This document shows positions 890 to 58,931 of a stretch of DNA of 64,000 nt, piece after piece (within the stretch, counting starts at the first letter, position 1; each line of letters starts with the position of its first letter). Made by a program: the position numbers and the translations under genes. This stretch comes from Salinivibrio kushneri. Its GTDB lineage: Bacteria > Pseudomonadota > Gammaproteobacteria > Enterobacterales > Vibrionaceae. The notes under the pieces are model-generated. The model ran no database searches. It was not told the origin of the DNA and worked only from the letters and a program-made list of their open reading frames with translations. Where the stretch lies: NCBI RefSeq assembly GCF_005280275.1, contig NZ_CP040021.1, positions 1,389,001-1,453,000 of the forward strand, read 5' to 3'.

Positions 890-1339
890 TCACATTCCTA
901 GCAAGTTACTCAGATCTTGCTTTAAGGTGTCTACCTGCTTATTGGCACTCTCTGAGCGATTAGCCTCAGAAAGTAAGTATTCGATGGTGTCTGACAAGGT
1001 CGCGTCAAGCTCGTGTGCTTTTTGCGAGAGTTTCTCCCACACCCGGTAATCCAAATCGATGGATTTTTTCCGCGTTTGCTCTTGCTCAGCGTTAAAGTGA
1101 CGCTTGCGCTTGGCGCGAATCGCTTGTTTTAGCTTTTTCTCCAACGACGGCGCCATGTGCTTTTCAATCCATTGATGCACCCGCGTGGGTTCATGTTCTA
1201 AGGCTAACAAAGCATCAACGGCTGTTTTAGCCTCATCGCTATCAATGTATTTTGTGACAGTGTCACCGTCTTTCCACTTTTTCACCAGGTAGGCCCATTT
1301 CCAGCCTGCCTCAAGGTTCTCGAGTTGTTGATATTTCAT
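890..1339 (-). CDS. matP: MatP, macrodomain Ter organiser
   Basis: MatP binds matS sites and condenses the Ter macrodomain, delaying segregation of the terminus through contact with the division machinery. The 149-residue protein begins MKYQQLENLEAGWKWAYLVK, as E. coli MatP (about 150 aa) does. It has the DNA-binding four-helix and ribbon-helix-helix parts (RKKSIDLDYRVWEKLSQ, about residues 91-107) and ends in a helical tail. I chose the ATG at 1339 over an upstream in-frame start at 1399 because it gives the family N-terminus. A perfect matS site (1254-1266) lies inside its coding sequence, and a one-mismatch site (1366-1378) lies 27 bp upstream of the start. Divergent ycbZ begins 184 bp away, the same neighbour as in E. 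coli. Confidence 0.96.
   Translation of the reverse strand: MKYQQLENLEAGWKWAYLVKKWKDGDTVTKYIDSDEAKTAVDALLALEHEPTRVHQWIEKHMAPSLEKKLKQAIRAKRKRHFNAEQEQTRKKSIDLDYRVWEKLSQKAHELDATLSDTIEYLLSEANRSESANKQVDTLKQDLSNLLGM
1254..1266. other. matS site, inside matP
   Basis: GTGACAGTGTCAC is an exact match to the MatP site GTGACRNYGTCAC. It encodes part of GDTVTK in MatP itself, so it is also constrained by protein sequence. Confidence 0.8.
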
Positions 1340-1365
1340 ATGCCAAGCTTTTGTCACGCCAAGTG

Positions 1366-1378
1366 GTGACAGCGTAAC
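1366..1378. other. Degenerate matS site upstream of matP
   Basis: GTGACAGCGTAAC differs from the matS consensus at one position of the right half. It lies 27 bp upstream of the matP start, where a bound protein could affect transcription. Binding is not proven by the sequence. Confidence 0.4.
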
Positions 1379-1522
1379 ACTAACGCGCTGTCTGTTCAAT
1401 TATCACACACCGAAATGATGCTAGGTGCGCCAATGGTTGATCCAGTGGCCCCACTATCCTATTACCACAGTGTGTTATCCTTTATACTCTATCCATTCTA
1501 ATCTTAGTCAGTAATCATAGAC

Positions 1523-3178
1523 ATGCATGAAGTTGATTGGCGTGATGCCAAACCACATTATTCTCAGTTTTCTCTCGACATTGCACAATTTGCGCATTTA
1601 GAGGCGGCGTCACTGTTATCACTGCAATCACGCTTAAAAAAGGCGCTGACTTGGTTAATGTCACCTTCGTGTCCAACGGCTTGTCTTACCGTGATGTCCG
1701 CTGACTTACCTCAATACCTTAATGCCTATCAAGCAGAATTAGCGACACAGTACCCAGAGGTGCCGGTTGTGATCGGTGATGCGATTACTGAATCAACACT
1801 GTTTGGCTTTGCTTACGATGCGAATAAAAATGTGACAGCGTCACAAAGAAGGTACGGTTTGCTACATCAAGCTCACGATGGCGTATTGATTTTAAAAGTC
1901 GCGGATATACTGCAGCAGCCGCGCATTTGGGTGCGTCTCAAGCAATACTTGTCAACGGGCAAGCTCGCTTGGCAAACCGCTCGCGCCGATCAAGTGACGG
2001 AGTTGCCCGATGAGGCAGTGAACGTACGCCTGGTGTTAGTCGGCGACAGACAGTGGCTGGCCGACTTTGAAACCAATGAGCCTGATCTCTACGACGGCCT
2101 GTCAGCTTATGCCGAATATGAGCAAGACATTGCGCTCGACGCGACCACCATTTTGCCCTACTTTGCTTGGCTAAAAGGCTTGGTTACCGCACACACTCAC
2201 TTACCCATGACAGAATCAGGCTTAGTACGTTTGTTGCAAGCCGGGGCACGTGAAAGCGAAGATCAATGGCGGATGCCCTTGTGTCCGGTTTGGTATCATC
2301 AACTACTGGCTGAATCTGTCATAACGGCGTCGGATGCCCTCGACAAAGCTGCCATTGATGCTGCTATCTCTCAGCGTTACCAACGTGCTGCCTACCTCCC
2401 CGAACGTGCGATTGAAGATATCCACAAAGGGCAAGTTTTTATTGATACCCGCGGCGAGCATATCGGTCAAATAAACGGATTAACGGTGATCGAAGTGCCT
2501 GGGCATCCGATGAGTTACGGTGAGCCAGCGAGAATTTCTTGTGTCGTTCATTCCGGTGATGGTGATATTGCTGATGTTGAGCGTAAAGCCGAGCTTGCGG
2601 GCAACATTCACGCCAAAGGCATGATGATTATGCAGGCCTTTGTGAGCGTGGCGCTAAACCTCGATGACCCTTTACCGTATTCCGCCTCCATTGTATTCGA
2701 ACAATCGTATAGCGAAGTGGATGGTGACAGTGCCTCCTTGGCTGAATTATGTGCCTTTGTGAGCGCGTTATCTCAACAACCGATTAATCAAGCCATCGCC
2801 ATCACCGGCGCCGTTGACCAATTTGGTCGCGTACAAGCGGTTGGCGGGATTAATGAAAAAATTGAAGGCTATTATCAAGTCTGCGCGCACCGTGGTTTAA
2901 CCGGTCAACAAGGCGTGGTGTTACCCAAAACCAACCTCTCTTCTCTGTGTCTACGTAACGACGTGGTTGATGCGATTAAAGCCGGCCAGTTTCATATTTG
3001 GGCGGTGGATGATGTCGAACAAGCCTTGCCGCTTGTGACAGGTCTCCCATTCTCCGGAGATGATGAGGAGACATTGCTCAGAAAAATATCTAATCGAATA
3101 AATCATTTTCATACTGATGACAAACAAAGCTGCAACAGTTTGTTTAAACGCTTAAAAAACTGGTTTGGCCAGTACTGA
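1523..3178 (+). CDS. ycbZ: Lon-type protease family protein YcbZ (LonH)
   Basis: The 551-residue protein matches E. coli YcbZ in arrangement. The N-terminal region (about 1-300) is a degenerate AAA-like region in which I find no Walker A motif. The C-terminal Lon peptidase domain (about 305-510) carries the Ser-Lys dyad: Ser403 in EVDGDSAS and Lys446 in GGINEKIEG. Other family blocks are GQINGLTVIEVPGHP and ERKAELAGNIHAKGMMIMQAF. The role is probably proteolysis, but substrates and energy use are unknown. It sits between divergent matP and co-directional fabA (68 bp downstream), as in E. coli. A perfect matS site lies within it, and a FadR-like site overlaps its last codons. E. coli YcbZ is slightly longer (about 586 aa). 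Confidence 0.92.
   Translation: MHEVDWRDAKPHYSQFSLDIAQFAHLEAASLLSLQSRLKKALTWLMSPSCPTACLTVMSADLPQYLNAYQAELATQYPEVPVVIGDAITESTLFGFAYDANKNVTASQRRYGLLHQAHDGVLILKVADILQQPRIWVRLKQYLSTGKLAWQTARADQVTELPDEAVNVRLVLVGDRQWLADFETNEPDLYDGLSAYAEYEQDIALDATTILPYFAWLKGLVTAHTHLPMTESGLVRLLQAGARESEDQWRMPLCPVWYHQLLAESVITASDALDKAAIDAAISQRYQRAAYLPERAIEDIHKGQVFIDTRGEHIGQINGLTVIEVPGHPMSYGEPARISCVVHSGDGDIADVERKAELAGNIHAKGMMIMQAFVSVALNLDDPLPYSASIVFEQSYSEVDGDSASLAELCAFVSALSQQPINQAIAITGAVDQFGRVQAVGGINEKIEGYYQVCAHRGLTGQQGVVLPKTNLSSLCLRNDVVDAIKAGQFHIWAVDDVEQALPLVTGLPFSGDDEETLLRKISNRINHFHTDDKQSCNSLFKRLKNWFGQY
1832..1844. other. matS site, inside ycbZ
   Basis: GTGACAGCGTCAC is an exact match to GTGACRNYGTCAC, 578 bp from the site inside matP. 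Confidence 0.8.
3158..3174 (+). promoter_or_regulatory. FadR-like operator upstream of fabA
   Basis: AACTGGTTTGGCCAGTA resembles the FadR palindrome AACTGGTCNGACCAGTT, with about three differences and an intact CTGG...CCAG core. It lies 72 bp upstream of fabA, overlapping the end of ycbZ. FadR activates fabA in E. coli; the same role here is inferred. Confidence 0.55.
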
Positions 3179-3190
3179 TCCGAGTTGTTT

Positions 3191-3208
3191 GGCGTACACG
3201 TGTACGCT
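3191..3208 (+). promoter_or_regulatory. FabR-like operator upstream of fabA
   Basis: GGCGTACACGTGTACGCT is an 18-bp palindrome with one outer mismatch. It fits the FabR repressor site as I remember it (AGCGTACAnnTGTACGCT). It lies 38 bp upstream of the fabA start and 16 bp after the FadR-like site, reproducing the activator-repressor pair known for E. coli fabA. Confidence 0.75.
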
Positions 3209-3246
3209 AATCTGCTCGCAATTGAATAAGGAGCAGTTTAGATATA

Positions 3247-3762
3247 ATGAAACGCCAAAATTCCTATAATCGCGACGATTTACTCGCGTCTAGCCAAGGT
3301 GAGCTCTTTGGCCCGGGACGTCCACAGCTTCCGGCACCAAACATGCTGATGATGGACCGCATCACCAACATTACCGATCAAGGTGGTGACTTTGATAAAG
3401 GCGTGATTGTCGCAGAGTTGGATATCAACCCAGACTTATGGTTTTTCGACTGTCACTTCCCTGGTGATCCCGTGATGCCAGGTTGTCTTGGTCTAGATGC
3501 CATGTGGCAGCTAGTCGGCTTTTTTCTCGGCTGGGTTGGCGGCGAAGGAAAAGGCCGCGCCCTAGGAGTGGGTGAAGTGAAGTTTACCGGACAAGTATTG
3601 CCAACGGCTAAGCGTGTTCGCTATGAAATTCACATGAAACGCGTGATTAACCGCAAACTCGTGATGGGTGTCGGTGATGGCCACGTCTACGTGGATGATA
3701 AAGAGATTTACGTCGCGAAAGATCTGAAAGTGGGGCTTTTCCAAGATACCTCAGCATTCTAA
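3247..3762 (+). CDS. fabA: 3-hydroxydecanoyl-ACP dehydratase/isomerase FabA
   Basis: FabA dehydrates 3-hydroxydecanoyl-ACP and isomerises the trans-2 product to cis-3, the branch point for unsaturated fatty acids in type II synthesis in the cytoplasm. The 171-residue length is usual. Catalytic His70 is in [15 protein letters not shown] and Asp84 in LGLDAMWQ. A ribosome site (AAGGAG) precedes the ATG. FadR-like and FabR-like operators lie upstream and a hairpin terminator lies 13 bp downstream. Neighbours ycbZ and rmf are the same as in E. coli. Confidence 0.98.
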
Positions 3763-3774
3763 TCCTCGCTGTCT

Positions 3775-3799
3775 AGCCGGTGACTATCGCCGGCTTTTT
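3775..3799 (+). terminator. Rho-independent terminator of fabA
   Basis: The stem AGCCGG/CCGGCT with a 9-nt loop is followed by TTTTT, just after the fabA stop. Confidence 0.85.
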
Positions 3800-3944
3800 A
3801 CCGCCCGCCTTCTTGACCCACCATATTTCCCCTCGCGCTTTGCTCGACTAATGGTTCAATTTTTTAGCGATTGTTAATGTTATCTTTGTACTTATTTTTA
3901 CTTGGTGACAAATAAATAAAGTTATAGTGCATTAAGTGCGAGTT

Positions 3945-3972
3945 AAAAAGGCCTTACCAAAACGGTAAGGCC
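3945..3972 (-). terminator. Rho-independent terminator of rmf
   Basis: On the minus strand GGCCTTACC, a short AT-rich loop and GGTAAGGCC form a perfect 9-bp stem, followed by TTTTTAA. It begins 20 bp after the rmf stop. Confidence 0.9.
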
Positions 3973-3991
3973 GTAGAAGATTAGAAAGAGA

Positions 3992-4162
3992 CTACTTCAT
4001 CATTTCCGATTTACTGGTTCTGCCTTCGCGCCATCCGCCAAGCCAGCTACTTCTAGCATCCGTTTGTTGGTAAGGACATAGTTCAGACGATCGACCGTTT
4101 ATACCTGCTTGAAAGCCCTTTGACTGTGCGCGTTCCAAACGATCTCGCTTCTGTCTTTTCAT
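3992..4162 (-). CDS. rmf: Ribosome modulation factor RMF
   Basis: This 56-codon gene reads MKRQKRDRLERA at the start, then GFQAGINGRSSELCPY and SSWLGGWREG. These are the hallmarks of RMF (E. coli RMF is 55 aa). RMF binds 70S ribosomes in stationary phase and drives formation of inactive 100S dimers. The start is supported by AAGAGGG seven bases upstream. It is convergent with fabA, as in E. coli, and has its own terminator. The product is strongly basic, as expected for an rRNA-binding protein. Stringent or stationary-phase control is known for the family; I could not assign its promoter. Confidence 0.96.
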   Translation of the reverse strand: MKRQKRDRLERAQSKGFQAGINGRSSELCPYQQTDARSSWLGGWREGRTSKSEMMK

Positions 4163-4332
4163 AGGGTCGCCCTCTTTATTCCATTTTGTTCAATGCTGCT
4201 TGCTATTTGCAAGGATGCTTCCGTCTGTGACGTTTTTATGAAGCACCTTCTACAGCTTCGATCATGATTATTTTTTAAGCAAGCACTATCGCGCAACAAC
4301 TAAACAAAATGTGAGTCATATCCCTCCCATAT

Positions 4333-4345
4333 GTGACAACGTCAC
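4333..4345. other. matS site downstream of uup
   Basis: GTGACAACGTCAC is an exact match to GTGACRNYGTCAC. It lies in the gap between rmf and the uup stop, 8 bp from the stop codon. Confidence 0.85.
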
Positions 4346-4353
4346 TAGCGCAA

Positions 4354-6264: not shown

Positions 6265-6505
6265 GTTGCGTTAACCAAGCTTGTAATTGTGTGTGATCAA
6301 ACGGCCATCCTAATTCAGCCCTCACCGCTCCAGACTGATCACGTATTGCGATCACAGGGATAGTGACGCCGTAACGCTCAAAGAGCGTATCGTCAAAGGC
6401 AATGTCCTGACTGTTGAGTGGCGTTTGATAACCGAGAGATTGATAGAGTGCCCACGCTTGTTCACAAAGGTGGCACCCTTCCGTACTAAACAATACGAGT
6501 GTCAT
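6251..6505 (-). CDS. Glutaredoxin-like protein (DUF836 family)
   Basis: The 84-residue protein has a thioredoxin-like fold pattern. Beta strand [10 protein letters not shown] leads into a CHLC redox pair (residues about 11-14), and TIPVI gives the cis-proline. It matches the small glutaredoxin family often found between rlmKL and uup in gammaproteobacteria. I chose the ATG at 6505 because it overlaps the rlmKL stop as ATGA, a sign of translational coupling; an upstream in-frame start would lie inside rlmKL. The partner and substrate are unknown. Confidence 0.85.
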
Positions 6506-11053: not shown

Positions 11054-14000
11054 TCAATTTAAATTTAACAGCGACAATTCACGGAGTGCCACCGAGAACT
11101 TGGCAAACTCATGCACTGAGCCCACTTTGAACTCATCAACAATGCTCTGCCAGCGGCCGAGGATCACCACGTGCTCATCCATCCATTGCGCTAACCCTGT
11201 CTCAGCATCTTGATCATCCGCCATTTCAGACACAATATGAGCGGTGAGTAAGCGTTGTTGCCAATCCAGATCTTCACGGAAAGACGCACGGGCCAAGGCT
11301 TGCCAGTGGTTATCCACGGGTTGATTGTTGATTTGTTTCAAGAACCAGTGCAGTGACAGGCTATCCCCTAGCACGTAATACAAGCGCGCCACCAGCTCAA
11401 ACGGCTTATTCAGCTGCTCTGACACCTGTGCTAAGTCTAAGCCAGAGAACACGCTAGTGAGACGACAGACTCTATTGGCCAGTGCATCCGGCACCCCAGC
11501 TTGTCGCAATGTCTCCGCCTGTTGGTCATGCTCTTTGATTTCACTCTCAACTAGATACTTGTCCAAGTGCTCAACCAAGTTTTGCAGCGCGGGGCGATAA
11601 AAGGCCACTTGTGCCTCGATGCTCTCCCCTTTACGTTTGTTGCGTAACATCCATCGCGTTGCGCGCCGTAACATCCGACGGCAACGGAACAAGATATCGT
11701 ATTGCACCTTAGCACTGACCTGATTATCTAGCGCTCGGACATCGTCAAATAATTGTTCAAAGCCAAACACATCACGCGCGATAGCATACGATTTGGCAAT
11801 CTCACTGACACTTGCGCCGGTTTCATCTTGCATACGCGTAATGAAATTAAAGCCCATGTCGTTCGACATCTGGTTCGCCAACGCCGTCGCAATGATCTCG
11901 CCGCGAAGTGGATGGGATTCCATTTCTTGGCGATAGTGACGCTGTAACTCTTTCGGGAAGTAACTGGGAAGTAGCTGGCCAAAGTGTGCATCTTGCGTCA
12001 CTTCGTCGACCACCAGTTGCTCTTTGAGCACCATCTTCCCGTACGCCACCAGCACGGCAATTTCTGGGCGCGTTAGGCCCGTGCCACGCAGATTACGCTC
12101 AGACAAGGTCTCATCATCCGGCAAATATTCAAGTGCGCGATCCAGCTTGCCCTCTTTTTCAAGATAATGAATAAAGCGGATCTGCTCTTTTAATAACGCA
12201 GCTTGCTGATTGTGGGTAACCGAAATCGACTCACTCTGACTGTACGCATCTTCAAGCACGATATCCGACACTTCATCTTCCATCCGCTCTAGTAGCTCGT
12301 TGCGTTTTTTCATGGTCAAGTCGCCAGCGGCCACCAGCCCATTGAGCAAGATCTTGATATTGACTTCGTTATCGGAACAGTCGACCCCACCAACGTTGTC
12401 GATAAAGTCGGTATTGACGCGACCGCCTTTGAGCGCATATTCGATCCGCCCCAGTTGCGTCATTCCTAAGTTGCCCCCCTCACCGATAATGCGGGCGCCA
12501 ATTTCGTTACCATTAACACGCAATCCGTCATTGGCGCGATCACCAACAGAGGTGTGGGTTTCATCAGACGACTTCACATAGGTGCCGATCCCACCATTCC
12601 AAAGTAGATCAACTTTGGCTTTTAAGATCTGCTTAATCAGATCATTCGGTGCCATTGACTGCTTGCGTGTCCCAAGCAGTTTTTGTATCTCTGGCGTTAA
12701 AGTAATCGACTTGGCGCGGCGAGAGAATACCCCCCCACCTTTGGAAATCAACTTGCTGTCATAGTCTTCCCAGCTTGAGCGCGGCAGGTTGAAAAGGCGC
12801 TGTCGCTCTTTCCAACTTTTTGCCGCATCTGGCTCAGGGTCAATAAAGATATGCATGTGGTTAAACGCAGCCACCAAGCGAATATGTTTAGACAGCAACA
12901 TGCCGTTACCAAACACATCACCGCCCATATCGCCAATCCCCACACAGGTAAAATCTGTGGTTTGACAGTTGATATCAATTTCGCGGAAATGACGTTTCAC
13001 TGACTCCCACGCACCGGAGGCGGTAATCCCCATCTTCTTGTGGTCATAACCGTTGGAACCACCCGACGCAAACGCATCGCCTAGCCAAAAGTCATATTGT
13101 GCGGAAACACTGTTAGCAAGATCGGAAAATGTCGCTGTCCCCTTATCTGCAGCAACCACCAGATAGGCATCGTCTTCGTCATGACGGACAAGGTGTCGCG
13201 GCGGTGTCAGGGTACCTTCCACGATATTATCGGTAATGTCGAGCAACCCTTGGATGAAGATCCGATAGCAGCGCTTCCCTTCCGCGAAAATCGCATCGCG
13301 ACCCGAGAGCTGGTGCTGTCGCTTACAGACAAATCCACCTTTCGCCCCAACAGGCACAATCACGGTGTTTTTCACCTGTTGCGCTTTGACAAGACCAAGC
13401 ACCTCGGTACGGAAATCTTCTTGCCGATCCGACCAACGAAGCCCGCCACGAGCCACCTTACCACCGCGTAAATGCACCCCTTCAACATCGGGGGAATACA
13501 CGAAGATCTCGAACGCCGGAACAGGCTTGGGCATATCCGGGATTTCAGAGGCCTCGAGTTTTAACGAGAGATAAGGCTTGTCTTGGCCATTATCCGGATC
13601 TTTTTGGAAGAAGTTGGTCCGTGTGGTCGCCAACATGATGTCCATGTAACGACGAATAATACGGTCATCATCAAGGCTCTCAACATTATCGAGCGCTTCT
13701 TCGATATCATTGATAATGGCGTCCTGCGCGCGCTTGGTTTGCTTACCCGCCGGATCAAAGCGCGTATTGAACAGTTTTACCAAGAAGCTGGCAAGCTGAG
13801 AGTGTGACGCCAACGTCTCTTCTATATAGGCTTGACTAAATGGAAAGCCAATCTGACGCATATAACGCGCATAAGCACGTAAAATCGTTACTTCTCGTCC
13901 CGACAACCCCGCATTGAGCACCAAGCGATTAAAGCCATCGTTGTCCAAACGGCCATGCCAAATATCGGCAAAGGCATGTTGGAAACGATCTCGGGCATTA

Positions 14001-16420: not shown

Positions 16421-19030
16421 TTACTGCTCAAGTGTTTTTTCTACTTTTTCATAAAGATCCGCTGCTAAGTTATCCATATCGGCCAACTCTTGCAATATCT
16501 GGCGCATTTGCTGCTGGCGATCGCGATCGTAATGGGCAAGCTTGAGCATAGGATCAATCAATCGAGACGCCACCTGTGGGTTAGATTGGTTGAGTATCAC
16601 TAAGATCTCTTTCAAAAACCGATAGCCGCTACCGTCTTTAGCGTGGAAACGCGCAGGGTTTCGGTTGCAAAAAGCGCCCACTAAGCTGCGAACACGGTTG
16701 GGGTTTTTAAGGGTAAAGGCCGGATGGTCCATTTGCACTCTAACTTGGTCAAGCGCATTGTCTGCTGGGTTTGCCCCTTGCAGCATAAACCATTTGTCCA
16801 TTACTAGCCCATCATGCTGCCATTTATCACTGAAATCTTTCATCAGTGGTTCACGGCACGGCAATTGCGCATTGTTGGCAGCATTCAATGCTGCCATGGT
16901 GTCGGTCATATTATTCGCAGCATGGTAATGACGCTCAACATGCGTATTGCCGTTTTCCGTATGGGCGAGATAGCCCAAACAGGTATTGCGCAACGCGCGC
17001 TCACCGATAGCTTTATGAGTGATCTGATATTCAGGCTGCGCATACTGGCGGTATACCGCATCAAACTCATCAACCATATGATCGGCAAACTGCTGCTTGA
17101 ACGCCGCCATCACCTGGTGAATAGCATCAACGTCAACGGTATCAAACCACCCTGCCACTTCGGTTTCACTTGGAAGATTAAGTACTTCTGCAATCAAAGC
17201 CGGATCCGTGTTGTCACTAAGGAGTACGCCACGGAACGCATCAATCACAGACAGAGGCACATCAATAGGCTGCTCGTTCTGTACCCGTGCGACGTTCGCT
17301 TTAATATGCTTAGCCAGTAGGCTCTGACCCGCATCCCACCGCGCAAAGTCATTACGCGCATGTTGCAATAAGAAGGCTAATTCATCATCTTGATAATCAT
17401 GATCAAGCTTCACCGGCGCCGAGAACTCGCGCAGTAGTGATAGCACAGGTTGCTCGTCCACCTCATCAAAAATAAAGGTTTGCTCTGTCTCCGTTACCGC
17501 GAGCACATTGGAGACGCTCTCACCGTGACGCTGTAACTTAATCACACTGCCATCACGACGATACAGCTCGATATCCAATGGGATGTAAAGCGGCAACTTC
17601 TCCTGTTGATCCGCCGTTGGCGGGGTGTGCTGAGAAACATGCAGTGCTAATTGTTTGCTATCAGGATCATACGTCGACGACACGCTGAGCACTGGCGTTC
17701 CCGACTGGCTATACCAACGACGGAACTGGGTCAAATCAATCCCAGAGGCATCCTCCATCGCTTGAACAAAATCATCACAGGTTGCCGCGGTACCATCATG
17801 GCGCTCAAAGTAAAGCTTAACCCCTTTTTGGAAGCCTGCTTCACCCAAAATAGTATGCATCATGCGGATAACTTCGCTGCCCTTCTCATACACCGTCAGG
17901 GTGTAAAAGTTATTCATCTCGATCACCTTCTCTGGCCGAATCGGATGAGACATGGGGCTGGCATCTTCAGCAAACTGCGGGCCACGCATAATACGTGCGT
18001 TATTGATACGATTAACCGAGCGCGAGCCTAAATCTGACGAAAACTCTTGGTCTCGGAATACCGTTAGCCCTTCTTTGAGGCTCAGTTGGAACCAATCACG
18101 GCATGTCACTCGGTTCCCCGTCCAGTTATGGAAGTACTCATGGCCAATGACCGCTTCGATGCCAAGATAATCGGTATCGGTGGCGGTTTCTGCGTTTGCC
18201 AATACGTACTTGGAGTTAAAGATATTTAAGCCTTTATTCTCCATGGCGCCCATGTTGAAGAAGTCAACGGCGACGATCATGTAGATGTCTAGATCGTATT
18301 CAAGATCAAAGCGATCCTCGTCCCATTTCATTGCGTTTTTGAGTGAAGTCATTGCGTGATCGGCACGATCCAAGTTGCCTTTATCAACAAAAATCTCCAA
18401 CGCCACATCTCGGCCAGATCGTGTGACAAACGTATCGCGTAACACATCAAAATCGCCACCAACCAGCGCAAATAGGTAGCTGGGCTTGGCGTAAGGGTCA
18501 TGCCATTCCACCCAGTGGCGGTCACCTTCCAATTCACCCGACGCGATCTTATTACCATTACTGAGTAAGTACGGATAATTTGCTTTATCCGCAATCACCT
18601 TGGTGGTAAAGCGCGCTAACACATCGGGACGGTCGAGATAATAAGTGATTCGGCGAAACCCTTCCGCTTCACACTGGGTGCAGTACGCCCCGCCTGAGAT
18701 ATAGAGCCCCTCTAAAGCAGTATTGTTTTCCGGGTCAAGCTGAGTTTGTACGGTTAACGTAAACGCTTCAGGAACGTCTCGGATAATCAATTTACCCGCT
18801 TCTTCACTATAAGCCGTCCAAGGGTCGCCGTTGATGTCTAGGCGCACTAACGTCAATGCGTCACCGTCTAGTTCGAGATCCGTCGCGTCATTATTCAGGC
18901 GTTTTACCTGACTGACGGCAGTGACCAGGGTGTTGTTCGGATGGAGATCAAACTCAAGATTGATGTCCGTAATAGTGAAATCCGGTGCACGGTAATCATC
19001 ACGGTATTTGGCGGTGGGTTGTTGAGACAT
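16421..19030 (-). CDS. pepN: Aminopeptidase N
   Basis: PepN is the main cytosolic M1-family zinc aminopeptidase and finishes the breakdown of peptides. The 869-residue protein has the GAMEN exopeptidase motif at 261-265. The zinc site is His297, Glu298 and His301 (HEYFH) plus Glu320 in LKEGLTVFRDQEF, at the same numbers as E. coli PepN. The N-terminal beta-saddle, thermolysin-like domain and helical C-terminal domain are all present in length. It is divergent from pncB with a 278-bp shared upstream region, as in E. coli where pepN and pncB are also divergent neighbours. Confidence 0.98.
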   Translation of the reverse strand: MSQQPTAKYRDDYRAPDFTITDINLEFDLHPNNTLVTAVSQVKRLNNDATDLELDGDALTLVRLDINGDPWTAYSEEAGKLIIRDVPEAFTLTVQTQLDPENNTALEGLYISGGAYCTQCEAEGFRRITYYLDRPDVLARFTTKVIADKANYPYLLSNGNKIASGELEGDRHWVEWHDPYAKPSYLFALVGGDFDVLRDTFVTRSGRDVALEIFVDKGNLDRADHAMTSLKNAMKWDEDRFDLEYDLDIYMIVAVDFFNMGAMENKGLNIFNSKYVLANAETATDTDYLGIEAVIGHEYFHNWTGNRVTCRDWFQLSLKEGLTVFRDQEFSSDLGSRSVNRINNARIMRGPQFAEDASPMSHPIRPEKVIEMNNFYTLTVYEKGSEVIRMMHTILGEAGFQKGVKLYFERHDGTAATCDDFVQAMEDASGIDLTQFRRWYSQSGTPVLSVSSTYDPDSKQLALHVSQHTPPTADQQEKLPLYIPLDIELYRRDGSVIKLQRHGESVSNVLAVTETEQTFIFDEVDEQPVLSLLREFSAPVKLDHDYQDDELAFLLQHARNDFARWDAGQSLLAKHIKANVARVQNEQPIDVPLSVIDAFRGVLLSDNTDPALIAEVLNLPSETEVAGWFDTVDVDAIHQVMAAFKQQFADHMVDEFDAVYRQYAQPEYQITHKAIGERALRNTCLGYLAHTENGNTHVERHYHAANNMTDTMAALNAANNAQLPCREPLMKDFSDKWQHDGLVMDKWFMLQGANPADNALDQVRVQMDHPAFTLKNPNRVRSLVGAFCNRNPARFHAKDGSGYRFLKEILVILNQSNPQVASRLIDPMLKLAHYDRDRQQQMRQILQELADMDNLAADLYEKVEKTLEQ

Positions 19031-21417: not shown

Positions 21418-23427
21418 CTAACGGTTGGCAGAAAGAAGATTAGCCAAATCTTTTGTGATGCTCGCGGCTTCATCTAAGTATGCATCTGGCTCTTCGTAGT
21501 CTTTAGGCACATCATCGAGCGTTTTAAAGGGGGGCTCACCCAATGCTTCCTGGCGCGTATTCAACCGCGCCAAACGCGCTTCGTCTTCCCGATCCATGTC
21601 TTTGCGACGTTTTTGTTCGTTCAAAGAAATCGTATTTTTATCTTTCTCTTCTTGGTAACGCGCAATATCTTGGCGAATGAAGTCGAATTCACGATCATCT
21701 TTGATCCGCGCTTTGTGCCTTTCGCCCAGCGTGCTTACCAGCGACGAAGGCAGCGATCTTGGTTGATAATCTGCTTTTTCAATCCGATCCCAAGGAAGCG
21801 CATTCTCCTCGACACTCTCACCGGTTTCATCCGGTGTGACGGGAGAAGGAAAGACAATATCTGGCACCACACCTTTGTTCTGGGTACTGCCACCGCTAAT
21901 CCGATAGAACTTCTGGATAGTGTATTGCACGTAACCCAGCGGTTTGTCGAACAAGTCATAAATATGGTTGAGCGAACGGTGCTGCTGTACGGTTCCTTTA
22001 CCAAAAGATTGCTCACCAAGCACGACCGCGCGATCGTAGTCTTGCATTGCCGCGGCAAAGATCTCAGACGCTGACGCACTATAGCGATTGATTAATACCG
22101 TCATCGGCCCGTCGTAGAAACGTTTGCCGTCCGTATCACTGTTCACTTTCACTCGCCCATAGCTGTCTCTGACTTGTACAATGGGGCCTTTCTCAATAAA
22201 CAAGCCACTGAGCGCAGTTGCTTCACTCAGTGCACCACCACCGTTATTGCGTAAGTCGACAACGATGCCGCTGATCCCCTTTTCTTTAAGATTGGCGATC
22301 TCTTTTTTGGTGTCATCGGCCAGCCCGACGTAAAACCCGGGGACCGTCAGTACGCCGATTTTTTCGTCACCACGCTCAATCACGTCAGATTTTACCGCGC
22401 GATCTTCTAGGCGTATTTTGTCACGGGTTAGAGTGACGTTGTAACTCTTAGCGTTAGCCCCTTCGGGCAAGATCTTGAGTTTCACCTCACTGCCTTTAGG
22501 GCCTTTAATCAGCTCGACCACATCGTCCAATCGCCAGCCAATCACATCAACAACCGCCTCGTCTTCTTGGCCCACGCCAATAATACGGTCGCCAGGTGAA
22601 AGCTGTTTGGACTTAGATGCCGGGCCACCGGCGACGAGGGAACGAATCACTGTGTATTCGTTTTTCACTTGTAACACCGCCCCTATTCCTTCGAGGGACA
22701 AGTTCATTTCCGACTGGAATTGCTCGGCATTACGTGGTGATAGGTAGCTGGTGTGTGGGTCAACTTCACGCGCAAAGGCATTCATGTAGACCTGAAACAC
22801 ATCTTCGCTGTGACTTTGGGTTAAACGCTTCAATGCGCTGTTATAACGCTTGCCCAAGGTCTCTCGGATTTCTTCATCCTCTTTCCCCGTCAAACGTAGG
22901 TTCAAAGCATCGTTTTTAACCCGTTTATCCCAAATGGCATCCAGTTCGGCTTCGTCAGCCGCCCAAGGCCGCTCCGTCCGATCTAGCACCATGCTTTCGT
23001 CAGCAGAGAAATCAAAGGGCTTGTCCAACACGCGCAGCGCGTACTGATAACGCTCAAAGCGTTTTTTCAGCACATGATTGTAAATCGCATAGGCTGCTTG
23101 TGTATCACCTTCTTTAAGCTGGTCATCTAAACGCGTTTTCCAGCGTGATAGACGTTCGACATCACCTTGGGTTAAAAACACACGGTTATAATCCAGTGTT
23201 TCCAAATAACGATCAAAAATCGCCGCTGAGAAGGCATCGTCGAGCGCGAACTGCTTATAGTGGGATCGAGTGAAACGAGAAGTTACACGCTTGGAAGCGG
23301 TTTCATGTTGGGGTTCAGCGGACAGTGAAGGGAGTTCACTGAGTTGAAAATTGGCTTCTACGGCCTGGGCAGAGGCTGCCAGCATCAAGCTGGCAGCGAT
23401 AGCCGAAACGCGGCGTCGACAAAACAT
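21418..23427 (-). CDS. prc: Tail-specific periplasmic protease Prc (Tsp)
   Basis: Prc degrades periplasmic proteins with exposed nonpolar C-termini and helps control peptidoglycan enzymes. The 669-residue protein has a signal peptide (about 1-22), a long N-terminal helical region, and a PDZ domain near residues 240-330 (LSLEGIGAVLQVKN to RIIGVGQ). The S41 protease domain has catalytic Ser452 in NRYSASASEIF and Lys477 in SFGKGTVQQ. The spacing between the two is the same as in E. coli Prc (Ser430, Lys455). It is 17 bp downstream of proQ, so the two form an operon, as in E. coli. Confidence 0.97.
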   Translation of the reverse strand: MFCRRRVSAIAASLMLAASAQAVEANFQLSELPSLSAEPQHETASKRVTSRFTRSHYKQFALDDAFSAAIFDRYLETLDYNRVFLTQGDVERLSRWKTRLDDQLKEGDTQAAYAIYNHVLKKRFERYQYALRVLDKPFDFSADESMVLDRTERPWAADEAELDAIWDKRVKNDALNLRLTGKEDEEIRETLGKRYNSALKRLTQSHSEDVFQVYMNAFAREVDPHTSYLSPRNAEQFQSEMNLSLEGIGAVLQVKNEYTVIRSLVAGGPASKSKQLSPGDRIIGVGQEDEAVVDVIGWRLDDVVELIKGPKGSEVKLKILPEGANAKSYNVTLTRDKIRLEDRAVKSDVIERGDEKIGVLTVPGFYVGLADDTKKEIANLKEKGISGIVVDLRNNGGGALSEATALSGLFIEKGPIVQVRDSYGRVKVNSDTDGKRFYDGPMTVLINRYSASASEIFAAAMQDYDRAVVLGEQSFGKGTVQQHRSLNHIYDLFDKPLGYVQYTIQKFYRISGGSTQNKGVVPDIVFPSPVTPDETGESVEENALPWDRIEKADYQPRSLPSSLVSTLGERHKARIKDDREFDFIRQDIARYQEEKDKNTISLNEQKRRKDMDREDEARLARLNTRQEALGEPPFKTLDDVPKDYEEPDAYLDEAASITKDLANLLSANR

Positions 23428-30406: not shown

Positions 30407-30597
30407 ACGCCGTACAAAGTGACCATCGATAGGCGCTTTAACAGCAAATCAGGGACCTTGGCTTACTCGCTAGGCCCCTGATAATACTGTTTATTCCACA
30501 AAGTCGTGTCACAAACTGGCAAGCCGTTATTGATAGACTACACTTTAGTAATCACAACCTAAATATTGGCATATGGCTCTTTGAGCCTTTTCCCTGA

Positions 30598-30628
30598 ACC
30601 CGGAACAGGACGTTCCGGGTATTTTTTT
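30598..30628 (+). terminator. Rho-independent terminator downstream of letB
   Basis: ACCCGGAAC and GTTCCGGGT form a perfect 9-bp stem with a 5-nt loop, followed by A and seven T. It is 190 bp after the letB stop, so it may instead end a separate short transcript. Confidence 0.9.
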
Positions 30629-30639
30629 ACGCTTAGAAA

Positions 30640-30652
30640 GTGACACCGTCAC
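30640..30652. other. matS site at the letB/cvfB convergent junction
   Basis: GTGACACCGTCAC is an exact match to GTGACRNYGTCAC. It overlaps the stop codon of the minus-strand S1-domain gene and follows the letB-side terminator by 11 bp. Confidence 0.8.
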
Positions 30653-44135: not shown

Positions 44136-47100
44136 ATGAAGGTAAATCGCCCTCGCCCATTTGGTAAGAGTATCGTCAGCAAGATTGGGTTGATTATGAC
44201 CTTCATCACCTTGATGGTGTTGGGCCTGTCAGTCTCGAGCTACATCATGCAAGATCGGGTTAACCGCGATGTCGGCCGCGCCACTCATCAAGAAATCCCG
44301 AGCGCGATCATCACCATGCGCATGCAACGGGCCGCCAGTGATATGAATGCCAGCATGCTCAAATATGTCATGGGCCGTCATGAATCGCTCGCCGTTTTTT
44401 TAGAAAGTCAGCAAGATTTTGAGCAATTACTGGCGCGCCTTCGTGAGGTAAAACCCGACGCAGAGCAGCGGCTTTCCTTGATCAGCCAGCTTTATGAGCG
44501 CTTCCAGCGTATCGCTCATCAAAAAGTCTTAACGGAGTTTGATCCCGTCGCTGAGCAATGGGCGCGTAAACAGGTGATGCGGCTATCCATTGATGTGGTT
44601 CGCCCTATCGATAACTTGATTGCCGAATTAAAAGCCTCACAAGCGCTGACACAGCCTGATAACCTTGCCGTGTTGCAATACCTTGATGAACTGGTGGATG
44701 AAAATGGCGATATGCTGACTGAGCTTAATCAGTATTTAGATGGGCGAAAAAGTAGCCGACAGCGCTTTATGGAGGATATGGCAACCTTTGAGCGCTATCT
44801 TTCCTTGACGCAGTTCGAGATCAATCACCCTGACTCACTCAACAAACTGTCGAGCATCCGCCACCATTTCACCAGTTTAAAGCGCAGTGGTATCGCTATT
44901 TTTAACAACTATCAACCCAGTGCCAAAGTCGCCGCCATGACCGCAGTGCGAACCTTGAGTGACCAAGAATACCAGGCGCTTGAGGATGCGCTCTCTACGT
45001 TCGCACAAGAGACAGGAAAAGTGGTAACCCGGTCTATGGTTGATTTACGTGCAATACTCCACTCAAATCAACTCAACCTTGGCTATTTACTGATTTTTAT
45101 CTTGTTCGTTAGTGGCGCGATGTACTTTTATATTTACCGCACATTCACTCAGCCGATTGCCAAACTCGCCGACTCCATGCAGCGCCTTGTGGCTGGCGAC
45201 ATGACGCCCCCGGCCCGCAATTTTCAAGATCGGACGGATGAAGTCGGCAAAATCGCTAATGGGTTAGTCATATTCCGCGCGCATATTATTTCTCGTAACC
45301 AAGCACGCGAACAGTTAATGGCCGAAAAAGAGCGCGCCGAAAGCGCATCACGTGCGAAAGCGCAATTTCTTGCGACCATGAGTCACGAAATCCGCACGCC
45401 AATGAATGGCGTGATTGGGATGCTCGATATGCTTCGTCGCTCGTCGTTAACGCCCTCTCAATATAGCCTGACGAGTACGGTGCGTGAATCCGCCCTTTCT
45501 TTGCTCTCCATCATTAACGACATCCTCGACTTTTCTCGCACCGAGGCCGGAAAGCTGCAATTTGAACGCGTCACCTTTTCTTTATCCGACACCGTAGAGC
45601 AAGTGATGGACACCCTCAGCCATCAAGCCAACAAGCGAAAGGTGACACTGTCACTATTTATTAATCCTGACCTCCCCGAACAACTGGTGGGCGATCCCAA
45701 CCGATTAAAGCAGATACTGTATAATCTTGTTGGCAATGCGATTAAGTTCTCCGGCGGCCAGCATCGTCAACCCGGTTTTGTCGCTGTCAATATTGACGCG
45801 ATGGATAACCAAGACGCGCAAAAAGCCCAGCTGGAGTTTACCATCACCGATAACGGCATCGGCATTGCGCCTGATAAAGTCGACACCATCTTTCAGCCAT
45901 TCAGTCAGGCGGAGTCGTCGACCACCCGTGAGTTTGGTGGCTCTGGGCTTGGCTTAGCCATTTGTAAGAATATTATCGATCTCCTCGGCGGTGATATTGA
46001 CATTGAGAGTGAGCTGGGAGTCGGCACACGATTTACCGTGCGTATCAGTTATACGGTGAATCCATTAGCAGAGCCTGAAGATTTACCGATTACTCGCGAG
46101 CAGGCGCAACAATTATCGGTTGAAGTGGATATTCCTCAAGACGCACTCAATCACGCAGTGTGCCGCTATCTGGCGCACTTGGATATCGCTTATCACCATG
46201 GCTCAGCACCGTCTAACGCAGAAAAGCAACCGACGAAGCACCGATTATTGATAACCACCCACACCGAGCCAAGCACATTAATCACTGAACGCGCTGTCGA
46301 GCATGTGATTGCACTCAAACATACCTTATCGCTAGCAACCCACCCTGATAAACGCATCGTCGAGCTGTTTGCCTCGCCATTAACCTATCGTCGTCTGGTC
46401 CACGGTCTACGCGTCTGCCTCGGGCTTGAGAGCCCTGATATCAGCATGTTAGCGGAATCTGACGCAATGCTACCTCTTCCCGACGAGGCAGACGCCAAAA
46501 CATGCGAGCCGGAACGCACTCGTGGATGTATTTTAGTGGCAGAAGACAACCCCACTAACCAACAGGTGCTGACTCAGCAACTCCATTACCTCGGCTATGA
46601 GGTGGTGATGGCGGATGATGGTAACCAGGCACTCGCGGCATATCAGAACCATCAGGTAGATCTTGTCCTCACCGACTGCCATATGCCCAATAAGGATGGT
46701 TATGCGCTCACCGCCGCTTTACGCGAGATCCAAGGTGCATCGGGTTGGGTACCTATTATCGCCATTACCGCCAATGCGCTCAGTGGTGAACAAGCGCGGT
46801 GTTTTGAGGCAGGCATGGACGATTACATTACCAAGCCCATTGAGCTGGATCCGCTTGACGAACGCTTAACCTATTGGATTAACCGTCCTCACACCACGAC
46901 AAGTTCGACACCCCCCCCTGTGACAGCCAGCGCCGAAGAGCCACATGTACTTGATCCAACGGTGGTTGAGCGCTTATATGGCGGGCAGCAACAGGCCTAT
47001 CAAGATATTGTCGATGTTTTCCTTAAACGTAGCGTCCCTAGCCTACGCGCCCTCGCGCAATCGCAACCGCCTTTTGAACATTGGCAAGCATTAAAAGAGG

Positions 47101-51748: not shown

Positions 51749-51775
51749 ACCTTTTACCCCACTCATGGATTGGTT

Positions 51776-54212: not shown

Positions 54213-54215
54213 TAA

Positions 54216-54234
54216 GGCTGAATCCTTTTAGCTT
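54216..54234. promoter_or_regulatory. Cra (FruR) operator 3, weaker
   Basis: GGCTGAATCCTTTTAGCTT keeps GCTGAA on the left and a degenerate right half. It starts 3 bp after operator 2 and abuts the TATAAT box, suggesting autoregulation of cra. Confidence 0.6.
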
Positions 54235-54326
54235 ATAATGCAAATAAATTATGGATCTGAAGTGCGTAAACTTTGATCGCATTCACAAAGCCATCAATAA
54301 CGATCGGCCTACTTAAGGATCGCTTT

Positions 54327-55340: not shown

Positions 55341-56476
55341 TAGCCTGTCGCTTCCATAAAGCCACGGCCTGTGGCACTGCCATGCACTTCCACAGGCCCT
55401 TCCCAATAGGGAAAACTCAAGTCCATCCAGCTCTGTGGGTTAAGCGGTTGCGTAGTCAGGCTAATGCCCTCACTGGGTACTTTGATCTGCCAACGAATCG
55501 GCAAGTTAGCGCCCTCCGCCATCTTGGCATGACTGACCGGCAGCATACGAATATCATCCTGGCTTAGCGTCACTACTCGGCCATCAGGAAACAGTAATGA
55601 ACCAAACATAAACGGCTCGGTGCCGCGTATTTGGGTAACCATTAACGCACGGCCATCATCTAAGTTAAGCCCAAACCAATCCCATCCCGTTTGTTCGGCG
55701 GCCATCGCGCCATTCGACCACTCCTTATCAAACCAGCCTTTTCCTGTCACGGGAATGGTTTCACCCGCAATGGTTAGCACACCCTTGACGGTTAGCTGTG
55801 GCAAAGAAAAATAATACGAAGCCGACGGCTGACTGGCATGACGGACACTATATCCCTCTTCACCGTGCTTGACCTGTTGTCCATTCTCTCGCACCTCCAA
55901 CGTAAAGCCGACTGGCTTACCTTGCGCAGGCCATATCGCACGCACACGGGCTGGAAAAGGTTGTTGACCGCCCTGCCATTGCCAGTCGTCTAACCAAGCC
56001 TGAAAAGGTGACAGCGTCACTCCTGTTTGATCAATCCCGCCACGGGCAAAGCGCTCCGACTCCCATTGTTTATCATCGCTCGTGATCGCTACATGCGCCA
56101 TATACAGCTGCTGACTCGCCCACCCTTCTTTGCGATCCGGAGCTAACGCGCGGCGAAACAATGTCCATTGCACGCCATACGCTTGTCCATTAGCGTCGGT
56201 TAAGGTCGCGGTCAAATACCACCATTCAGTAGCAAAATCTGAGTGTGCCGCCATGTCTTGGGGATAGGTAGGCGTGTGGTCTGGGGTTACAGAGGCAAAG
56301 CCACTTTGCGAATCAAAAACGGCAAAATTTCCACGGGTATCAGGAGACGATGACGGCGGCTGCCCCCACCATACTAGCGCGCCGAGCGCGATGATCACAC
56401 CACCCCCTAACAATGAACGTATCATTTTCCGCTTCCATCGCTGAATCACTTCACTGCCTCTTTTTTTACTGCGCAT
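55337..56476 (-). CDS. AttH/CrtC-like lipocalin-domain exported protein
   Basis: The protein of about 379 residues has a basic N-terminus and one hydrophobic segment (MIRSLLGGGVIIALGALVWW), then two lipocalin-type halves of the CrtC/AttH family. Hallmarks are DFATEWWYLTATL, TGKGWFDKEWSNG, GWDWFGLNLDDGRALM and, at the end, YWEGPVEVHGSATGRGFMEATGY. It overlaps the permease stop, so it is the third gene of an ATPase-permease-AttH operon. An in-frame ATG at 56425 with GGAAGCGGA upstream is also a good start. It is probably the envelope part of an export system. There is no sign of a carotenoid role. Confidence 0.82.
   Translation of the reverse strand: MRSKKRGSEVIQRWKRKMIRSLLGGGVIIALGALVWWGQPPSSSPDTRGNFAVFDSQSGFASVTPDHTPTYPQDMAAHSDFATEWWYLTATLTDANGQAYGVQWTLFRRALAPDRKEGWASQQLYMAHVAITSDDKQWESERFARGGIDQTGVTLSPFQAWLDDWQWQGGQQPFPARVRAIWPAQGKPVGFTLEVRENGQQVKHGEEGYSVRHASQPSASYYFSLPQLTVKGVLTIAGETIPVTGKGWFDKEWSNGAMAAEQTGWDWFGLNLDDGRALMVTQIRGTEPFMFGSLLFPDGRVVTLSQDDIRMLPVSHAKMAEGANLPIRWQIKVPSEGISLTTQPLNPQSWMDLSFPYWEGPVEVHGSATGRGFMEATGY
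55397..55404 (-). other. KOPS-like octamer pointing toward dif
   Basis: CCCTTCCC is the reverse complement of GGGNAGGG and points left, toward dif. Confidence 0.3.
56008..56020. other. matS site, inside the AttH-like gene
   Basis: GTGACAGCGTCAC is an exact match to GTGACRNYGTCAC. Confidence 0.8.
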
Positions 56477-58931
56477 CACGCAACGACGCCGCCGCGGTGC
56501 GTTTTAGCATGCGATAAACAGGCCAAGCCCCTGCGACCATAAGCGCCAACATGGACAGCCCGATGGTGGTGGCATAGCTTATCGGGAAGAAGCTCATGGT
56601 CATGGTCCACCCAAACGATGCTTTCAGGACAACATGGATCAACATACCCGCCAGCACAAGCCCCAACGGGATGGCAATTAGCGCACTGGTGAGGCCAAGC
56701 AGCACCAATTGCCCTCCCCCGAGCGCGATAAGCTCACGCCCTGACAGGCCAAGGTAACGTAGCAAGCTATATTGCCGTTGGCGCGATAGCTCGGTCGCCA
56801 AGGTGGAAAAGAACAACCCACATATCGCGACAATCAACATCAGTGCACACAAGCTTTCCGTCACGGTAAAGGTACGATCAAAGATACGCATTGCATAACG
56901 CATAATATCCGCTTGGTTTTGCACCTGCCCAGTGGTCAGCGAAAAACGGTGATTGATGCGATCAACAAACTGCTCGGTTTGCGTGTCCTGATTGAGGACC
57001 ACCGCCAGCGATGATCGGCCCTGCTTTAGCCATTGTCCCGCATCACTGCGGGTAGACACTACTAGCTGGCCATAGGGGTTGCCATAATCGTAATAGATCC
57101 CAGCAACCTGCCAGTGCTCGCCCATTGGGGCGGGAAGATTGATGCTCTCTCCCACGCCAACGCCAAATTTAGCCGCTAACGCTTCACTGAGTAATACCGT
57201 GCGCGCTTGATGTAATTGCGCCCAGTAATCAGGTTGGGACGCCTTCATCGCTAACGTTTGCTTCTCAGACATACGGTTGCCTACCGACAGCACTTCAAGC
57301 CGCCCTTGGTTTGTCGTCAGCTCACGCCGATACGTGGTCCAAAATTGCGCCACGTCTTTATTCTTTACCAACCATGTTTCCATCTCCGCGAGAGCAGCAT
57401 GGCTCGGCCTAACATAAACGTCCGCTGCCAAGCGTTGTTGCAGCCAAGTCTCAGTGCTCGTGCGAAAGCTACCGACCATGGTTTCCATACCAATATGTGC
57501 CGAAACCGCGAGCATAAACGCCATCGCCGCCACACCACGGTAACTTAAACTTGCCGCCGCATCGGTGAAAAACCATCGCCATCGCGCGCCCGCATACACT
57601 GCTGCACTGGTATGAAACAGCCAGCCACACAAATAAGGCAGCGCTAAAGCGGCACTTAGCATGGTAAAGGCAATCAAGGTAAACCCTTGCCATTGACTCG
57701 TCTCCCAATACGACACGCCCCACGCCGCCACGCCAAGCAACACCGCTAAAATAGCCTGTACGGCATATTCTCGATGTGTACCACGCATCAGGGTCATCCG
57801 TTGCGATAAGCGCCCCGGGGAGGTGTTGACTAAGCGCACCAAAGGCCAAGCGGACGCCATCGCCGCCCCTAAAATAGCAAGCAGTAAACTGTAGAGCCCC
57901 CATTGCCACTGCCAATGCATCACTAAATTAATGTCTGCGCCGTACAAATCAGACAAGGTCGTGGCGACCGCGGGAAGTAATTGGTTGGCAAGTAACATAC
58001 CCAGGACGTTGCCACTGACCACGCCGAGTAGCACCCAAAGCAACAACTCTGTTGACATGACAGCTGAGAGTTGGCGTCCATCAACGCCAAGCTGCCGCAA
58101 GGTTCCGACCAAGGGCTGACGCTGAGTCATGGAAAGGGAGATCGCCTGATAAAAAATAAACAGTCCCACCACAAAAGCCAATAACCCCATCGCGAGCAAA
58201 TTTAAGTGAAAAGCACGGGTGAGTGGGCCAAGTTGGGTTGATTGGGTTTTGGTCAACGTCAAGGCTGAGGGTAACGCTTCGCGAATCGTTTGTCGCTCCG
58301 CTTGAGACAAATCGCCGCATAACACCTCGGTAAACCCAGTACGCGCAGAGAGATGACGCAGTAGCGCCATATCAGCCACCAAGTAAGTGCCCATACTCAG
58401 CGCATCATTATCGATAATACGCAAAGGGCCGATCGGCGGGTAATCCAGCAAATCAATCATTTGCCCCTCTTCCCAGCCTTTATGTTCAGCCATGGCCTCT
58501 CCCACATAGACAGGATATGGCATTGAGATCGCATCCATAGGGGACAATGAAGGGGCTTCATCGGCTCGCTGATTGGCGATAAATGGCAGCATCGCGATTG
58601 TATCCACCCCCATCAGATGGATATCACTAAGTGACGGTGTCACAACATCGAGACGATCAATCGGCACACATTGGGTTAAGCCTTGACGGCGCAAGCCAAT
58701 GTAAAAGGCATGCGGCACGCGTTGTGTTCGCTCGGTATGATGAATGCTAAAAGGGTAAGGGTTGCTAAAAAGCTGTTCACCTTGGCGATAGCTTTGCTGC
58801 GCATGTTGGTTTATCGATAACACGCCAACCAGCAAAGAGACACCCAGGGTTAACCCAAGCCAGACGAGAAAGACTTGAAAGGGATGGCGACGATAATGCC
58901 CCCATAAAGCGCTAGCGACGGGCCCGAACAC
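56466..58931 (-). CDS. ABC transporter permease, FtsX/MacB type, two-unit
   Basis: The 821-residue protein has a first membrane segment near residues 18-38 (VFLVWLGLTLGVSLLVGVL), a large outside domain, three segments at about 235-370, a central group at about 390-480, another outside domain, and three segments near the C-terminus. This is the double FtsX layout of permeases that move lipids or lipoproteins rather than soluble substrates. It starts with GTG at 58931 and overlaps the ATPase by 20 bp. With the ATPase and the AttH-like protein it forms one operon. A KOPS-like octamer and a matS site lie within it. Confidence 0.88.
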   Translation of the reverse strand: MFGPVASALWGHYRRHPFQVFLVWLGLTLGVSLLVGVLSINQHAQQSYRQGEQLFSNPYPFSIHHTERTQRVPHAFYIGLRRQGLTQCVPIDRLDVVTPSLSDIHLMGVDTIAMLPFIANQRADEAPSLSPMDAISMPYPVYVGEAMAEHKGWEEGQMIDLLDYPPIGPLRIIDNDALSMGTYLVADMALLRHLSARTGFTEVLCGDLSQAERQTIREALPSALTLTKTQSTQLGPLTRAFHLNLLAMGLLAFVVGLFIFYQAISLSMTQRQPLVGTLRQLGVDGRQLSAVMSTELLLWVLLGVVSGNVLGMLLANQLLPAVATTLSDLYGADINLVMHWQWQWGLYSLLLAILGAAMASAWPLVRLVNTSPGRLSQRMTLMRGTHREYAVQAILAVLLGVAAWGVSYWETSQWQGFTLIAFTMLSAALALPYLCGWLFHTSAAVYAGARWRWFFTDAAASLSYRGVAAMAFMLAVSAHIGMETMVGSFRTSTETWLQQRLAADVYVRPSHAALAEMETWLVKNKDVAQFWTTYRRELTTNQGRLEVLSVGNRMSEKQTLAMKASQPDYWAQLHQARTVLLSEALAAKFGVGVGESINLPAPMGEHWQVAGIYYDYGNPYGQLVVSTRSDAGQWLKQGRSSLAVVLNQDTQTEQFVDRINHRFSLTTGQVQNQADIMRYAMRIFDRTFTVTESLCALMLIVAICGLFFSTLATELSRQRQYSLLRYLGLSGRELIALGGGQLVLLGLTSALIAIPLGLVLAGMLIHVVLKASFGWTMTMSFFPISYATTIGLSMLALMVAGAWPVYRMLKRTAAASLRDAQ
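56712..56719 (-). other. KOPS-like octamer pointing toward dif
   Basis: CCCTCCCC is the reverse complement of GGGNAGGG and points left, toward dif. Confidence 0.3.
58631..58643. other. matS site, inside the permease gene
   Basis: GTGACGGTGTCAC is an exact match to GTGACRNYGTCAC, the only copy here with G at the R position. Confidence 0.78.

What the first reader, a model, noticed from the sequence alone, without database searches (positions are those of the whole stretch)
1254..58643. Dense set of eight perfect matS sites defines a Ter macrodomain
Exact GTGACRNYGTCAC occurs at 1254, 1832, 4333, 29070, 30640, 45642, 56008 and 58631. With equal base use, about 0.015 would be expected in 64 kb. 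One site per 8 kb is about four times denser than what I recall for E. coli (about 23 in 800 kb). Several come in pairs (1254/1832, 29070/30640, 56008/58631), which could suit bridging by MatP tetramers.
Basis: partly seen in the sequence, partly recalled or inferred. Interest (0 to 1): 0.75.

Follow-up and report, generated by a model that had tools for sequence, protein, structure and literature searches.

The report
Salinivibrio Ter macrodomain with matP operator
The eight repeated 13-base sites are very probably binding sites for the chromosome-organising protein MatP around the end point of replication, a known arrangement; the less expected part is that the matP gene sits beside that end point and carries a conserved, slightly altered copy of the site in its own promoter region, which suggests that MatP controls its own level.

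Summary
matP (890-1339) is about 0.4 kb from dif. The genus is Salinivibrio, whose matS-rich Ter domains are already tabulated (PMC10945525, passages). The four-fold density is a dif-proximal peak; the pairs are not significant.

Beyond the finding, a half-altered matS, GTGACRNYGTAAC, is confined to Ter: 38 of 38 main-contig copies in six genomes lie within 250 kb of matP, against 5 of 17 for other letters there. Five occur in this window, so MatP probably has about 13 sites here. One lies in the matP promoter region: a matS-like 13-mer with a GTTAC half precedes matP in 80 of 80 Vibrionaceae loci examined (best 80 of 518), with TTG at -35 spacing in 78. MatP autorepression is the likely meaning (inferred); six library searches showed no report of it.

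The parts
475..502 (-). dif1 (XerCD dimer-resolution site)
   Evidence: No mismatch to the dif pattern used (the 28 bases printed). Same site in Salinivibrio relatives. KOPS-like GGGNAGGG in the window 1 on +, 4 on -.
890..1339 (-). matP, 149 aa
   Evidence: PF06303 E 1.4e-41; translation; solved MatP chains E 1.3e-50 to 6.5e-48.
1254..1266 (.). matS inside the matP coding sequence
   Evidence: strict site kept in 5 of 5 Salinivibrio relatives.
1366..1378 (-). matP operator (inferred), GTTACGCTGTCAC on the - strand; contains the -10-like TACGCT at 1371-1376
   Evidence: footprint.
1394..1399 (-). -35-like hexamer TTGAAC, 17 bases from TACGCT
   Evidence: Read; TTG at this spacing in 78 of 80 loci. 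The consensus scan found no promoter-like site here.
1832..1844 (.). matS in a LonB-like gene
   Evidence: strict in 3 of 5 relatives.
4333..4345. matS between the fabA-like and uup-like genes (names by synteny with E. coli)
   Evidence: strict in 4 of 5 relatives.
6363..6375 (+). half-altered matS GTGACGCCGTAAC in a 95-aa ORF (glutaredoxin-like by eye)
   Evidence: Identical in 5 of 5 relatives. In that frame 3 of 91 13-mers have all ten fixed bases invariant.
11936..11948 (+). half-altered matS in the NAD-glutamate dehydrogenase gene
   Evidence: Kept in 5 of 5 relatives; background 21 of 1602; gene by Pfam.
17525..17537 (+). half-altered matS in a peptidase M1 (pepN-like) gene
   Evidence: Kept in 4 of 5 relatives; G007 differs by one base; gene by Pfam.
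22433..22445 (+). half-altered matS in the tail-specific protease gene
   Evidence: Kept in 5 of 5 relatives; background 10 of 665; gene by Pfam.
29070..29082 (.). matS
   Evidence: strict in 5 of 5 relatives.
30640..30652 (.). matS just past the SdsR/SraC RNA locus
   Evidence: strict in 5 of 5 relatives.
45642..45654 (.). matS
   Evidence: strict in 4 of 5 relatives.
56008..56020 (.). matS
   Evidence: strict in 5 of 5 relatives.
58631..58643 (.). matS
   Evidence: strict in 5 of 5 relatives.

Best explanation
The window is the dif-proximal part (dif at its left edge, then one replichore side) of the MatP/matS Ter macrodomain of the main chromosome of a Salinivibrio. MatP binds the eight full matS and, with probably lower affinity, five half-altered sites (GTGACRNYGTAAC), keeping MukBEF off the terminus and holding it at mid-cell (function taken from E. 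coli and V. cholerae work, not shown here). One half-altered site lies in the matP promoter region: its GTTAC half supplies the -10-like hexamer TACGCT, so MatP bound there should exclude RNA polymerase. matP is therefore most likely autorepressed. Shown: sites, distribution, conservation, promoter-like geometry. Inferred: binding, promoter function, repression, relative affinities.
For: Sites and Ter confinement. dif on both contigs. matP next to dif. Conservation in Salinivibrio. Half-altered class confined to Ter, 38 of 38 against 5 of 17 for the control letters, Fisher p 1.4e-8. Matching 13-mer upstream of matP in 80 of 80 loci; among 44 representatives differing by more than 30% outside the 13-mer, only the 13-mer and the TTG 17 bases upstream of its TACNNT stand out, and the third base is T in 44 of 44. 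Similar sites precede matP in other families within one mismatch of GTKACRNYGTMAC: f27 7 of 7, f19 4 of 6, f9 3 of 5. In G009, with one strict matS, the promoter site is also eroded; G008 has no strict matS and no such match in its locus.
Against: No binding or expression data. Of the 19 loci outside family f1, five lack a site within one mismatch (L162, L167, L170, L174, L175; L167 has one at two mismatches, the start of L170 is uncertain). L045/G034 has 12 matS but no such site. L032 and L036 (f1) keep only a shorter match, ATTACACTGTCAC. TACGCT is a weak -10 and the consensus scan found no promoter. E. coli K-12 has GTTACACGGTAAC there, three mismatches from strict matS, read by eye. Genomes pooled in the counts are related, not independent.
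Confidence: 0.85

Rival explanations
1. The half-altered sites in coding sequence are by-products of codon and protein conservation, not MatP sites; only strict matS matter.
For: All four coding copies in the window lie in - strand genes and read as conserved peptides (YGVT, LQRH, LQRH, YNVT or YSVT).
Against: 38 of 38 Ter confinement on main contigs in six genomes against 5 of 17 for control letters; middle triplets vary only within RNY in the five relatives; low in-frame background of invariant 13-mers for three of the four genes.
Confidence: 0.15
2. The polar row at 1366-22433 is a Tus/Ter-like replication fork trap (the E. coli Ter core GTTGTAAC, recalled, looks similar).
For: All 7 copies in the genome are on one strand and 5 lie in 21 kb beside dif. 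In six genomes put in window orientation, 20 of 25 copies on the window side of matP are on +, against 6 of 13 on the dif side, though many are orthologous.
Against: No Tus homologue (PF05472) at E up to 10. In four other complete genomes copies occur on both strands. The middle triplet follows matS RNY, including GCC and AGC.
Confidence: 0.04
3. The matP promoter site is bound by another regulator that resembles MatP in specificity, or by MatP as activator.
For: No binding data; the Vibrionaceae site with its constant GTTAC half differs from matS.
Against: In 67 of 80 loci it differs from strict matS at one position and in 13 at two; it overlaps the inferred -10. One f27 member has a full matS there (L168).
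Confidence: 0.12

Closest known systems
MatP/matS Ter macrodomain of Escherichia coli
   Same: MatP protein, the 13-bp matS, confinement to the dif region, density rising to dif (PMC10945525, passages).
   Different: matP lies next to dif here; in E. coli K-12 it is at 1.018 Mb, far from dif (about 1.59 Mb, recalled). Two replicons each carry matS here.
TerI and TerII of Vibrio cholerae (PMC4177673, passages) and the Salinivibrio kushneri entries of PMC10945525 (table seen)
   Same: matS on both replicons around dif1 and dif2; similar domain sizes.
   Different: Strict consensus here counts 21 and 13; the paper's motif search gives 37 and 20 for S. kushneri, which would fit a population of sites below the strict consensus (another species, another method).
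Autoregulated ribbon-helix-helix DNA-binding proteins (recalled)
   Same: Small DNA-binding protein with an operator over its own promoter.
   Different: Here the regulator's main job is chromosome organisation, and the operator is a weakened copy of its structural site.

Membership tests
MatP/matS Ter macrodomain | MatP orthologue in the genome | tested here: met
   PF06303 142.7 bits, cut-off 27; solved MatP chains matched.
MatP/matS Ter macrodomain | matS consensus sites far above chance | tested here: met
   8 against 0.00 in shuffles; genome 34 against reversed control 0.
MatP/matS Ter macrodomain | Sites confined to the terminus around dif | tested here: met
   C1: 21 of 21 in 424 kb including dif. 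C2: 13 sites, 7 of them within about 20 kb of its dif; confinement on C2 was not measured.
MatP/matS Ter macrodomain | MatP bound at matS in vivo; MukBEF excluded; mid-cell Ter | not testable with these tools
   Needs ChIP-seq, Hi-C or imaging.
MatP autorepression | Conserved matS-like operator overlapping the promoter | tested here: inconclusive
   Conserved 13-mer in 80 of 80 loci and TTG spacing in 78 of 80, but promoter function is inferred and the consensus scan found none.
MatP autorepression | MatP lowers matP transcription | not testable with these tools
   Needs a reporter or RNA measurement with and without MatP.
Tus/Ter fork trap | Tus protein present | tested here: not met
   PF05472: no match at E up to 10 in the genome.

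The most novel reading that the evidence does not exclude
MatP level is set by titration. The many strong matS soak up MatP, and a permanently weakened matS that doubles as the -10 of matP, placed at dif among the densest matS, reads only the free excess. MatP supply then tracks the number of terminus copies of both replicons. The same operator logic is old, present across several families of the order, and in Vibrionaceae kept from becoming a full matS because GTGAC would destroy the -10.
Probability: 0.3. Interest if true: 0.65.

Novelty: new member of a known kind. Interest (0 to 1): 0.42.

Why it matters
The macrodomain itself is expected. The added results give two direct tests: whether MatP controls its own gene through a weakened matS, which would explain how its supply is matched to site number, and whether strict-consensus counts miss a defined class of Ter-confined sites near dif.

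Tried and rejected
Tus/Ter fork trap: rejected on the missing Tus and on both-strand copies in other genera, although a strand excess on the window side remains (20 of 25). Polarity as a general rule: complete only in the own genome; the four coding copies lie in - strand genes, and in two of them a full matS in that frame would put TGA in the reading frame (frame offset 2), whereas the six strict matS inside listed ORFs never use that frame. Pairs as designed units: not significant. Near-consensus site 21326 (GTGACACCGTCTC): conserved in 0 of 4 relatives with an alignment, so taken as chance. The promoter consensus scan found nothing. A search for the E. coli dif with up to 3 mismatches in the window found nothing; the looser pattern did. 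Reading for prior reports of matP autoregulation: searches (listings), with passages of PMC11205535 and PMC6538776, showed none; subscription papers are mostly not held, so this is weak evidence of novelty.

Full report
Observation. The genome has 3,443,290 bases in two contigs, and the window is C1:1389001-1453000. Genome-wide there are 34 strict sites and none of the reversed control pattern. All 21 on C1 fall in 1,166,034-1,590,192; 13 are on C2.

Where the window lies. A dif site with no mismatch to the pattern is at C1:1389475 (- strand), that is window 475-502; a second, with one mismatch, is at C2:77612. GC skew is slightly positive in the first 4 kb and negative in every later 4-kb block. 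KOPS-like octamers are 1 on + and 4 on - in the window; in four relatives where dif was located by pattern all of them (2-10 on the right, 1-2 on the left) point to dif, small numbers; in the fifth, G001, the pattern did not find dif, though blastn aligned its dif region to the window. Strict matS density falls away from dif: 25 per 100 kb within 10 kb, 11 within 50 kb, 4.2 within 250 kb.

Organism. PMC10945525 (passages and table) already lists S. kushneri chr1 with 37 matS in 613 kb and chr2 with 20 in 314 kb, and states that density rises to dif in the 16 bacteria it studied. The finding as given is therefore known biology. The seven same-genus genomes searched have 30-39 strict sites.

Conservation of the eight sites. 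In five Salinivibrio relatives the orthologous 13-mer is a strict matS in 36 of 40 cases (my count); the middle three letters often change within RNY. Losses are in G002 (1832, 4333, 45642) and G007 (1832).

A second class. GTGACRNYGTAAC, one letter off, occurs 7 times in the genome, all on +, five of them in this window at 1366, 6363, 11936, 17525 and 22433, about 5 kb apart. These are kept in 24 of 25 site-genomes in the five relatives, with middle letters only within RNY. In six complete genomes of the family all 38 copies on the matP-bearing contig lie within 250 kb of matP (28 within 100 kb); other letters at that position (GTGACRNYGTKAC) give 5 of 17, Fisher p 1.4e-8. The doubly altered GTTACRNYGTAAC gives 7 of 8. 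These counts pool related genomes, two of them Salinivibrio, and are not independent events; copies on second contigs were left out because their termini were not located. In window orientation 20 of 25 copies on the window side of matP are on +, against 6 of 13 on the dif side, so some strand excess exists, partly through shared orthologous sites, but it is complete only in the own genome. In coding genes the background chance that the ten fixed bases are invariant in the same frame is 3 of 91, 21 of 1602 and 10 of 665 for three of the four genes; the fourth site is not invariant. Taken together these look like weaker MatP sites. They fill the 25-kb gap between strict sites 4333 and 29070.

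The matP gene and its promoter region. matP (890-1339, - strand) lies about 0.4 kb from dif and holds a matS (1254). Within their flanks of up to 10 kb, dif (at most one mismatch) was found in 38 of 80, in all 38 on the same side and strand; in the rest it is further away, diverged or cut off. Upstream of matP GTTACRCTGTMAC is found in 79 of 80 loci and the variant GTTACGGCGTCAC in one; a hexamer beginning TTG lies exactly 17 bases upstream of the hexamer at the -10 place in 78 of 80. Among 44 representatives differing by more than 30% outside the 13-mer, flanks are mostly near random while the 13-mer and the TTG stand out; the third base, free to be G or T in the search, is T in all 44. The 13-mer was used to place the alignment, so its own invariance is partly by construction; the TTG and the constant T are not. 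Of the loci, 24 were given to (L031, L033, L046, L047 and L048 were left out: two Salinivibrio already in the set of 80, the two overlapping pieces of G006, and the diverged G008) and 20 of 24 have the site (misses L044, L032, L036, L045). Of the 38 genomes with MatP, 26 new loci were fetched and examined; eight matches came without a locus there. Within one mismatch of GTKACRNYGTMAC: f1 7 of 7, f27 7 of 7, f19 4 of 6, f9 3 of 5, f22 0 of 1. E. coli K-12 has GTTACACGGTAAC just upstream of matP, read by eye. Some of these loci may come from the same species as the set of 80.

Reading. In Vibrionaceae the GTTAC half would serve as -10 (TACRCT), which a full matS (GACRCT) would destroy, so the operator stays a weakened matS. 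A MatP dimer there should block RNA polymerase. That is inferred from anatomy; the consensus promoter scan found nothing. In G009, a 2.1-Mb genome with one strict matS, the promoter site has decayed too, and G008, with a diverged MatP, has no strict matS and no such site in its locus; both fit a link between MatP binding and this site. G034 is a counter-example, with 12 matS and no operator.

Pairs and bridging. Four of seven gaps at or below 2,623 bases has P about 0.07 under uniform placement. PMC7394560 (passages) concludes that bridging of matS sites is infrequent in a DNA-rich environment.

Verdict. Observation confirmed, interpretation supported, finding itself already known in kind and in genus. 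The matP operator and the Ter-confined half-altered class are the parts worth a bench test.

Noticed in passing
window 30513-30652: SdsR/RyeB on + and SraC/RyeA on - overlap here; a conserved matS starts 12 bases after the SdsR 3' end, upstream of the predicted SraC start.
   Followed up: no
L046, L048 (genome G006): matP of one Salinivibrio draft is in two overlapping pieces while the upstream operator and nearby matS are present; sequencing error or a broken gene.
   Followed up: partly
L047 (genome G008, 2.6 Mb) and L044 (genome G009, 2.1 Mb): Smaller genomes of the family with a MatP homologue but 0 and 1 strict matS: the site set seems lost before the gene.
   Followed up: partly
L069-L148, 5.0-8.1 kb upstream of matP: GTGACRCCGTAAC recurs there in 46 of 80 loci in the same orientation; that it lies in the same glutaredoxin-like ORF was not checked in each.
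   Followed up: partly
C2 of the own genome, 57539-97234: The second contig has its own dif at 77612 with seven strict matS between 57.5 and 95 kb and one half-altered site at 97222.
   Followed up: partly
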